From the NCBI GenBank assembly GCA_018897155.1, contig JAHILE010000044.1, positions 1 to 28,507 on the forward strand: a stretch of 28,507 nucleotides of DNA, given 5' to 3'. The notes beneath the pieces are model-generated. The model was not told where the DNA came from, searched no databases, and worked only from the letters and a program-made list of their open reading frames with translations. Positions 1 through 13,698 of this stretch are shown in pieces (position 1 is the stretch's first letter; each line of letters starts with the position of its first letter). The stretch is from Nanoarchaeota archaeon (GTDB taxonomy: Archaea > EX4484-52 > LFW-46). Made by a program: the position numbers and the translations under genes.

Positions 1-100
1 CAGTTACTTTCTGCGAAAATGAAATATCTGCGTTTTTTATGGCACGTTTGTCTTTCTGCCTTATGATCCAACGAATCTTCTCGTTATTCAGCTTTTTCAT
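1..100 (-). CDS. N-terminus of a transposase/integrase-like protein, cut by window edge
   Basis: The minus strand from ATG at 100 reads 33 open codons to the window edge, beginning MKKLNNEKIRWIIRQKDK. This lysine- and arginine-rich opening followed by a helix-turn-helix-like stretch resembles the start of IS481/IS3-type (rve superfamily) transposases of archaea. No catalytic residue is visible because the rest lies outside. An AATTAATT element about 24 bases upstream could be its TATA box, shared with the divergent gene at 158. The family call rests on resemblance only. Confidence 0.5.
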   Translation of the reverse strand, partial: MKKLNNEKIRWIIRQKDKRAIKNADISFSQKVT

Positions 101-118
101 GTATTCTATAATGGGGTG

Positions 119-128
119 GAAATTAATT
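119..128. promoter_or_regulatory. possible shared divergent promoter core
   Basis: The symmetric AATTAATT lies about 24 bases from the ATG at 100 (minus) and 33 bases from the ATG at 158 (plus). It is the only good TATA-like element in the 57-base gap. Inferred from spacing. Confidence 0.3.
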
Positions 129-157
129 CGGGATAATACAAGTTAGAGTTGATTTGA

Positions 158-364
158 ATGTCCGAGTATGAAGAATTTAAGGAGATCGTACTTAAACGCT
201 TAGAGGCTATGCCGGAAAATGTAAAAGTATCGATGGGCTCTATAGGTACTTTTACGAGGGATGATTTAATACAGAATGTCACGAAAGATAGTGACGTAGG
301 AAAATTCATAGTTAAGATGCAAATAGAATATTTAAGGGCGATGAGCCGGGGTTTTTCTAAATGA
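158..364 (+). CDS. 68-aa protein coupled to a caspase-like protease
   Basis: I do not recognise this family. It has a charged N-terminal helix (residues 1-20), a central stretch around NVKVSMGSIGTFTRDDLI that looks like a strand pair leading into a helix, and a C-terminal amphipathic helix. There is no signal peptide and no cysteine. Its stop overlaps the start of the protease gene (ATGA), so the two are translationally coupled and probably made together. That arrangement suits an inhibitor, activator or recognition partner of the protease, but nothing in the sequence decides which. The length and absence of membrane segments fit a soluble cytoplasmic protein. Confidence 0.6.
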   Translation: MSEYEEFKEIVLKRLEAMPENVKVSMGSIGTFTRDDLIQNVTKDSDVGKFIVKMQIEYLRAMSRGFSK

Positions 365-1020
365 AAAAGATATTCCTTATCACGAGGCCGCAACATGAAT
401 ACAGGGTTTCTTATATGCACGCCTGGAGTAAGGAAATTATCGATTTTGCAATAAAAAATGCAATATCCTATACTGATTTTGATAAAAAACAAGCGACAAG
501 AAAAAATGTAGAAAAATATCTTAAAGCAAGAAAGCCGAACTTTGTAATCTTTAATGGTCATGGACCCATAGATTCGACAGCAATTTTAGGGCACAATGAT
601 GAAGCTTTGATAGAAACCGGAAAAAATACTGATTTGCTCAAGGACACGATAGTTTATGCTCGGGCATGTTGCTCTTCAAAAATTCTTGGACGTGAAATAA
701 TCTCTAAAAATAATAAAAACGCATTTATCGGTTACTCTAATCTTTTTTCATGGATTCACTCTGCGGATAGAGAATGCAATCCCTATAAGGATAAGATTGC
801 AGAGCCATTCAAGTTAGTGTCAAATGAGATACCGATGTCAATCCTAAAGGGGCATACAACTTATGAAGCTCACGAGAGGGCACAGGAGTTATGCATGAAA
901 CTAATACAGGAATACTCCGCCACTGGAAATGAGGAACTGGATAAGGAGACAAGGTTTTGGTTGTTTGTAGATATGACTATTCAGGAACATCGAGGTAATC
1001 CCGAGGCTCGTTTTCAGTGA
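361..1020 (+). CDS. caspase-like (clan CD; CHAT/C25-type) cysteine protease
   Basis: The 219-aa protein has two hydrophobic strands ending in the clan CD hallmarks: FVIFNGHG with His67, and TIVYARACCSS with Cys103 (or Cys104), 36 residues apart. This is the His-Gly then Ala-Cys order of caspases, gingipains and CHAT proteases. A following AFIGYSN strand also fits the fold. There is no signal peptide and no TPR or other fused domain, so it is a stand-alone cytoplasmic catalytic unit. It overlaps the 68-aa gene by four bases. Such proteases often act in regulated proteolysis or abortive defence, and the transposase alongside suggests an accessory locus. The substrate is unknown. The fold call comes from motif reading, not a profile search. 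Confidence 0.65.
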   Translation: MKKIFLITRPQHEYRVSYMHAWSKEIIDFAIKNAISYTDFDKKQATRKNVEKYLKARKPNFVIFNGHGPIDSTAILGHNDEALIETGKNTDLLKDTIVYARACCSSKILGREIISKNNKNAFIGYSNLFSWIHSADRECNPYKDKIAEPFKLVSNEIPMSILKGHTTYEAHERAQELCMKLIQEYSATGNEELDKETRFWLFVDMTIQEHRGNPEARFQ

Positions 1021-12265: not shown

Positions 12266-12681
12266 ATGGGTACTTCGGCATCGTTGGAAGGATCAAATGA
12301 TATGTATTGGCGTAAGAAATACAATTCTTAAGAAACAGTCTAGGGACGATGTTGTAGATTTAAAGCTTAAGGCGCTTCGGATTATTGTAACTTCTTCAAC
12401 CGAAAACAACCCCCTACACTATTGAAGAAATCCTTAATAAAATGGAAGAACTCTACGACATCAAACCTACTGATTTGACGTTACTGTATGGAACAATCGG
12501 CGTTATGCAAAGAGAATTATTTCCTTATATTGGAAGGGTAAAAAGCAGTTGCCGAGCAGATACTAAAACGCGCTATTTTTTCCGCACCAATAAATTCCAA
12601 GAAACCTCTAATGAACACGTTGGACATGTGCTAGAAAACTTTCTTAAAGCTCTTGAAATGGTTGAGACTGAGTTGTATTGA
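12266..12681 (+). pseudogene. small gene split across three frames
   Basis: Three short frames run in series. ATG 12266, correctly spaced from a TATA box, gives 21 codons (MGTSASLEGSNDMYWRKKYNS). A second frame opens by ATG 12297 and runs to 12425 (...KQSRDDVVDLKLKALRIIVTSSTENN). The third starts at ATG 12442 and runs to 12681 (79 aa, MEELYDIKPTDLTLLYGTIG...). Removing one C from the run of five at 12410-12414 joins frames two and three into ENNPYTIEEILNKMEELYD, a natural-looking sequence. A further shift near 12325 would join frame one. The intact product, about 135 aa, belongs to no family I recognise. It is either a decayed gene or the site of assembly errors. Confidence 0.5.
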
Positions 12682-13272: not shown

Positions 13273-13698
13273 ATGGGTTATGGATGGCTTGTAGAAAAAT
13301 GGGATGATGCCATAACTAATAATCCCGTTGATGCGATTAGAATAAAGCATAAAGAGCTTCTGCAAACGTATGGTGATAAAGAATTTCTTTCCAAAACATT
13401 GGGTGAACAAATAGATGATGTTTGGATAGAAACGCCGCTAAATGTCGGATTTAAAAAATTTGGTATACGTTCCGAGTTAACGCCGGATATATGCGCCATA
13501 TCCGCTGATTGCGCGTATTATTTGGCGGAATTAAAAGTTCCCGAAGGCTCGAAAAAAAGCGCGAGGCGCGACATTAAACAATGTTCCAGAGTGCTTGTCG
13601 ATTATGGTCTTCCGCATACTTGCGTAATAATACACGACGGCGTTGCAGAAGTTTTAAACATCGGCACGTCGTCATATAGGACTTGCAGAAAATTATGA
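13273..13698 (+). CDS. small PD-(D/E)XK nuclease-like protein
   Basis: The 141-aa protein has a central pattern typical of the PD-(D/E)XK fold: LTPDICAIS (acidic residue after a strand), then YYLAELKVP, an E-x-K on the next strand, then a helix with SARRDIKQCSRVLVDYG that includes the often conserved Gln. An N-terminal helical part (1-75) precedes it. No fused domain or partner methylase is seen. The TATA-like element TAATATAA near 13240 lies about 30 bases before the ATG. It ends three bases from the argS stop on the other strand. The nuclease idea rests on these motifs only. Confidence 0.5.
   Translation: MGYGWLVEKWDDAITNNPVDAIRIKHKELLQTYGDKEFLSKTLGEQIDDVWIETPLNVGFKKFGIRSELTPDICAISADCAYYLAELKVPEGSKKSARRDIKQCSRVLVDYGLPHTCVIIHDGVAEVLNIGTSSYRTCRKL

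What the first reader, a model, noticed from the sequence alone, without database searches (positions are those of the whole stretch)
158..1020. Two-gene unit: 68-aa protein plus stand-alone caspase-like protease
The protease has a clean His67 / Cys103 clan CD pair but no recognition domain. The overlapping 68-aa gene is unfamiliar and could supply recognition, inhibition or a substrate. The position beside a transposase hints at an accessory or defence unit.
Basis: partly seen in the sequence, partly recalled or inferred. Interest (0 to 1): 0.65.

Follow-up and report, generated by a model that had tools for sequence, protein, structure and literature searches.

The report
Mobile three-gene caspase-like protease cassette
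The two genes found here are what is left, after a mobile element cut into the first gene, of a compact three-gene cassette: two tiny partner proteins plus a caspase-type protease. It moves as a unit among small-genome archaea and candidate-phyla bacteria and looks like an uncharacterised conflict or toxin-control module.

Summary
ORF 158-364 (68 aa, 'B') and ORF 361-1020 (219 aa, 'C') are real. C has a clan CD cysteine-peptidase fold (AF2 pLDDT 96.8; best PDB matches SAVED-CHAT Z 16.4 and gingipain RgpB Z 16.1). Among 48 homologues the Cys is invariant and the His is kept in 47.

The native unit has three genes: A (~61 aa), B (~70 aa), C (~215 aa), always in this order and strand, often overlapping. 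Of 49 full-length C loci, 49 have B and 47 have A; the two lacking A sit at contig ends. In the window, A is cut by a repeated element and only its last codons (LELI-stop, 143-157) remain.

The cassette is patchy (about 3-15% of sampled archaeal and Patescibacteria groups). The host genome carries three copies from three separate clades. DNA similarity between close copies stops near the cassette edges. All three genes are under strong purifying selection (dN/dS 0.04-0.15).

Best reading: a horizontally moving conflict or toxin-antitoxin-like module in which A and B hold or license protease C. Function is inferred, not shown. No Pfam family was found for A, B or C.

The parts
1..141 (-). End of a multi-copy repeated element (probable insertion sequence). 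An open frame on the minus strand starts at about position 100 and runs off the contig. This element interrupts gene A.
   Evidence: 100% identical stretches of 138-141 nt at three other places and a 99% identical one at a fourth; the window contig starts inside it. The 33-aa visible frame gives no Pfam hit, so 'transposase' is inferred.
143..157 (+). 3' remnant of gene A (codons for LELI-stop) directly before gene B
   Evidence: Matches the gene A tail ...IALELI-stop in the closest relative L007; 48 of 53 gene A proteins end in two hydrophobic residues.
158..364 (+). Gene B, 68-aa partner protein (helix, beta-hairpin, helix, helix predicted in a homologue)
   Evidence: ORF; homologue beside every full-length C (49/49); dN/dS 0.04-0.09 in close pairs; secondary structure.
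361..1020 (+). Gene C, 219-aa clan CD (caspase/gingipain/CHAT fold) cysteine peptidase
   Evidence: Fold: pLDDT 96.8; SAVED-CHAT Z 16.4, RgpB Z 16.1, legumain 13.8, separase 12.8, Craspase TPR-CHAT 12.1.
559..561 (+). Codon of His67, predicted catalytic
   Evidence: 47/48 homologues; the exception L044 has Tyr
667..669 (+). Codon of Cys103, predicted nucleophile
   Evidence: 48/48 homologues
790..792 (+). Codon of Asp144, invariant; possible substrate-pocket or structural residue
   Evidence: 48/48 homologues; the role is inference

Best explanation
This is the damaged copy of a three-gene, horizontally moving cassette A-B-C. C is a single-domain clan CD cysteine endopeptidase made without its own pro-domain or sensor. 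A and B are small proteins of similar predicted layout, encoded first and translationally coupled to C. The most likely working: A and B bind C and keep it latent (antitoxin- or pro-domain-like) or license it. A trigger such as infection or stress frees C, which cleaves cellular targets and stops growth. So it would be a toxin-antitoxin-like or abortive-infection module whose effector is a caspase-type protease. Shown: cassette structure, predicted clan CD fold and conserved dyad, co-occurrence, mobility, selection. Inferred: binding of A/B to C, latency, toxicity, trigger.
For: Order, strand and tight spacing are constant: 49 full-length C loci, B in 49, A in 47; 28 of 47 A-B and 28 of 49 B-C junctions overlap. 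Gene A matches occur almost only where C does: 17 vs 16 of 297 genomes, 16 shared, and 23 vs 25 of 236, all 23 shared. A, B and C diverge together (r 0.62-0.76; 0 of 2000 permutations as high). The three copies of this genome lie in three clades, and cassettes 85-92% identical in DNA sit in unrelated flanks, so it spreads by transfer. Decay mostly hits C while A and B stay open (L026, L031, L040, L047, L084, L089; His to Tyr in L044; orphan A-B frame L066). A single-chain AF2 model of a naturally in-frame A-B-C read-through has pTM 0.77, more than C alone would give, so some packing of A/B on C is predicted (inference).
Against: No toxicity, binding or cleavage data exist. The decay bias is not significant once the window (A hit, C intact) is counted and C's greater length allowed for (by hand, 7 of 8 gives p about 0.13). 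pTM of a tethered chain is weak evidence for an interface. No consistent defence neighbours. Cassette edges vary between pairs, so it is not a transposon by itself.
Confidence: 0.45

Rival explanations
1. A and B are sensors/activators: they recognise an invader or stress product and switch C on (adaptor-protease conflict system), so A/B are needed for activity rather than for restraint.
For: Known prokaryotic clan CD effectors of the same fold are switched on by partner modules (SAVED-CHAT, Craspase; EACC1 systems, PMC7159879). A and B are strictly tied to C.
Against: A and B are only ~61-70 aa and strongly conserved (dN/dS 0.04-0.15), with no sign of a variable sensing surface. Gene A was not seen with another effector in the archaeal genomes searched, unlike exchangeable adaptors.
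Confidence: 0.27
2. A and/or B are the substrates: C cuts them to release an active peptide (signal, bacteriocin-like or membrane-active), or matures a complex.
For: Small proteins next to a dedicated protease; gene A ends in an amphipathic helix, often lysine-rich, with a conserved hydrophobic C-terminus (48/53).
Against: No membrane-like segment (best 19-residue hydropathy in A 1.39, B 1.03); no constant neighbour such as an exporter; both small proteins are predicted to be folded.
Confidence: 0.13
3. Ordinary regulatory proteolysis (housekeeping or stress regulon) that happens to be patchy in small genomes.
For: Strong purifying selection on all three genes.
Against: Present in only about 3-15% of genomes in each group sampled, at unrelated sites even within one genus, with decayed copies and three divergent copies in one genome.
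Confidence: 0.1
4. C is a catalytically dead clan CD scaffold that binds A/B for a non-proteolytic role.
For: One homologue (L044) has Tyr for His and keeps intact A and B.
Against: Cys 48/48 and His 47/48 over homologues as low as 25-35% identical.
Confidence: 0.05

Closest known systems
Clan CD peptidases: SAVED-CHAT, gingipain RgpB/Kgp, legumain, separase, caspases
   Same: Fold over the whole chain (Z 11-16) and the His-Gly / (Ala,Ser)-Cys dyad pattern
   Different: About 10-15% identity; single domain of ~215 aa with no pro-domain, SAVED, TPR or secretion module; no Pfam family reaches its cut-off
EACC1-caspase two-gene systems (Kaur et al. 2020, PMC7159879)
   Same: A small 5' gene directly before a caspase-superfamily gene; proposed conflict role
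   Different: EACC1 has a conserved TM helix and the caspase gene carries variable extra domains; here two soluble small genes and a bare protease, in small-genome archaea and CPR bacteria rather than mainly multicellular actinobacteria
Type II toxin-antitoxin modules
   Same: Small coupled upstream genes, mobility, patchy distribution, several copies per genome, orphan remnants
   Different: The putative toxin is a protease and there are two small partners; neutralisation untested
Orthocaspase MaOC1 with a ParDE-like module (PMC7935541)
   Same: Prokaryotic caspase homologue encoded beside small toxin-antitoxin genes; the protease cleaves the antitoxin there
   Different: The partner is a ParE/ParD-like toxin-antitoxin pair flanked by direct repeats; no A-B-C order
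Craspase (type III-E CRISPR TPR-CHAT)
   Same: Clan CD effector controlled by partner proteins (fold match Z 12.1)
   Different: No TPR domain in C and no constant CRISPR neighbour

Membership tests
Clan CD cysteine peptidases | Caspase-hemoglobinase fold | tested here: met
   Model pLDDT 96.8; SAVED-CHAT Z 16.4 / 2.6 A / 175 residues, RgpB Z 16.1
Clan CD cysteine peptidases | His-Gly then Ala/Ser-Cys catalytic dyad after hydrophobic strands, conserved | tested here: met
   NGHG and (A/S)C motifs; His 47/48, Cys 48/48
Clan CD cysteine peptidases | Cysteine protease activity | not testable with these tools
   needs an enzyme assay
Pfam Peptidase_C25 and other Pfam clan CD families | Profile match above the curated cut-off | tested here: not met
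   17 members scanned; only one Peptidase_C25 hit, at E 0.023; no other clan CD family listed
EACC1-caspase system | 5' small protein with a single conserved TM helix | tested here: not met
   No membrane-like segment in A or B; no such Pfam hit
EAD/adaptor-effector networks | Same small domain occurs fused to or beside several different effectors | tested here: not met
   Gene A found with C, or as one remnant and one orphan A-B frame, in samples of 297 and 236 genomes; tested for gene A only
Type II toxin-antitoxin | Small gene(s) coupled upstream of the effector, mobile and patchy | tested here: met
Type II toxin-antitoxin | Effector toxic alone and neutralised by the partner(s) | not testable with these tools
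   needs expression tests
Known defence systems in PADLOC-DB 2.0 | Profile match of the components | tested here: not met
   Window B and C: only marginal hits (E 0.0017 or worse) to short parts of unrelated profiles; gene A was not scanned in PADLOC
SAVED-CHAT (CRISPR or CBASS effector) | SAVED sensor domain | tested here: not met
   C is a single domain spanned by the peptidase fold; A and B are ~61-70 aa

The most novel reading that the evidence does not exclude
A previously undescribed class of proteolytic toxin-antitoxin or abortive-infection system in which a bare caspase-type protease is restrained by a pair of related microproteins, exchanged between DPANN archaea and CPR bacteria.
Probability: 0.35. 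Interest if true: 0.85.

Novelty: new variant of a known kind. Interest (0 to 1): 0.62.

Why it matters
If true, it gives a minimal (~1.1 kb) caspase-type control module, with no large sensor, in small-genome archaea and candidate-phyla bacteria whose immune and cell-death systems are largely unknown. All three proteins are small and predicted soluble, so activity, inhibition and structure can be tested directly. Its presence in both archaeal and bacterial lineages would also tie together two groups of presumed symbionts.

Tried and rejected
Pfam (A, B, C families), NCBIfam and PADLOC (window B, C) and PHROGs (B): no family; gene A has a weak 18-residue similarity to DUF7713 (E 6e-4, below cut-off). 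PDB sequence profiles for A, B and C: nothing convincing; B has marginal OmpR-type winged-helix hits (E 0.018), not pursued. Cas12 hits of C are chance-level and do not fit the predicted fold. Plasmids and phages by tblastn and viral contigs by pattern: no relative. Defence-island test: neighbours include MNT/HEPN, AAA_14-DUF4143, Fic and restriction genes, but the control set also has PADLOC hits and counts per protein could not be compared, so no enrichment is claimed. The A/B part of the A-B-C model found no listed PDB match, but that part was barely tested. The one genome-contig scan, made with a 3-row alignment, was too narrow. Proteins cannot be joined for a complex fold; a natural in-frame read-through (L044) was used instead.

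Full report
Observation. Neither has a Pfam, NCBIfam or PADLOC family. The window is one whole contig of a 1.43 Mb archaeal genome in 62 contigs.

The pairing is real. The same genome holds two more copies of the protease (40% and 33% identical) and both have the small gene directly upstream. They also showed a third gene of ~60 aa before it. The same three-gene order appears in an Aenigmatarchaeota contig, a Berkelbacteria (CPR) contig and relatives. I call the genes A, B and C.

Scope. C was found in 5 of 34 genomes of the window's phylum, 16 of 297 archaeal relatives, 25 of 236 genomes of a large archaeal phylum, 4 of 29 in another (two of those four are distant homologues, L098 and L099, for which no A or B was found) and 12 of 379 of the Berkelbacteria's phylum, i.e. 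Patescibacteria. All archaeal carriers have small genomes (0.6-2.1 Mb). Other bacterial phyla were not sampled and most archaeal groups are unnamed here, so 'DPANN and CPR only' is not claimed. No relative was found in plasmid, phage or viral collections with the queries used.

Cassette. Among 49 full-length C loci, B is present in 49 and A in 47; the two without A (the window and L042) end at a contig edge just upstream. A-B overlap in 28 of 47 and B-C in 28 of 49. Gene A occurs with C almost one to one: 17 genomes with A and 16 with C of 297, 16 shared, the extra one a fragment (Fisher p about 1e-25); 23 with A and 25 with C of 236, all 23 shared, the two C-only genomes holding C fragments. 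Pairwise distances of A, B and C correlate (r 0.62-0.76; no permutation of 2000 as high). dN/dS is 0.04-0.15 for each gene in close pairs.

The window copy is broken. Positions 143-157 read LELI-stop, the end of gene A, in the same place as in the closest relative L007. Everything before about 138-141 is the end of a repeated element that is also found at four other places of this genome. So an insertion cut gene A a few codons before its stop; no 5' part of A was found in the assembly. The C5 copy has a DDE transposase gene immediately before gene A, whose N-terminus differs from the family.

Protease. AlphaFold2 on 48 homologues gives pLDDT 96.8. Solved clan CD peptidases match over the whole chain: SAVED-CHAT Z 16.4, gingipain RgpB 16.1, legumain 13.8, separase 12.8, procaspase-7 12.2, Craspase TPR-CHAT 12.1. 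Cys103 and Asp144 are invariant in 48 sequences, His67 is kept in 47. Superposition of the dyad on known active sites could not be inspected, as coordinates are not returned.

Small proteins. A and B have the same predicted layout (helix, beta-hairpin, helix, helix). Profile comparison is suggestive of common ancestry but not conclusive (hhalign probability 31-43%, E 2.5e-4 to 5e-4 for a single comparison); two B proteins also match the A profile. Neither has a membrane segment. A's C-terminus is hydrophobic in 48 of 53. One natural locus (L044) has A, B and C in one frame; its read-through folds with pLDDT 93.9 and pTM 0.77. By my arithmetic C alone would give about 0.57, so A/B are placed with moderate confidence, but the chain is tethered.

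Mobility. The three copies of this genome fall in three clades; the window copy is sister to the Aenigmatarchaeota copy (100/100), and CPR copies are drawn in three places (the tree does not prove several bacterial origins). Three cassettes from genomes of three different families are 85-92% identical in DNA, and similarity ends close to the cassette (about 118 nt upstream, carrying a TATA-like box, and about 20-190 nt downstream); two genomes of one genus share the cassette at 86% with unrelated flanks. No fixed ends are evident, so transfer by recombination or carriage on another element is likelier than self-transposition.

Decay. In six loci C is broken or truncated while A and B stay open; in L044 the His is Tyr; L066 is an A-B frame without C. 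The reverse is seen in the window itself. The bias fits a costly effector but is not statistically firm.

Mechanism. I favour a toxin-antitoxin-like or abortive-infection module with A/B restraining C (0.45), over A/B as activators (0.27), substrates (0.13), housekeeping (0.10) and dead enzyme (0.05). Comparable known systems are EACC1-caspase (PMC7159879) and MaOC1 (PMC7935541), but the features defining EACC1 (TM helix, two genes) were tested and not met. Text searches found no paper describing this cassette; the library is partial.

Noticed in passing
1366-2208: Bro-N domain protein directly downstream of the cassette, a strong match to PADLOC candidate PDC-S13 (E 1.8e-114); homologues lie near the cassette in two other genomes (L117, L126), but one also occurs in the control set.
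   Followed up: partly
L099 (G900:C104) 1360-2529: Distant C-like domain followed by YcdB/PepSY (protease-inhibitor type) domains in one protein.
   Followed up: no
L098 (G903:C49) 547-1314: Stand-alone C homologue with a C-terminal amphipathic extension; no A or B was found.
   Followed up: no
L044 1072-2136: A, B and C lie in one reading frame separated only by stop codons and a few linker codons, and the catalytic His is Tyr.
   Followed up: partly
L066 1234-1647 (minus): Orphan fused A-B reading frame without C, beside a purM-like gene (purM by eye); the same genome has an intact cassette elsewhere.
   Followed up: partly
12442-12681 and 13273-13698: Two small ORFs among housekeeping genes with no Pfam match.
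   Followed up: no
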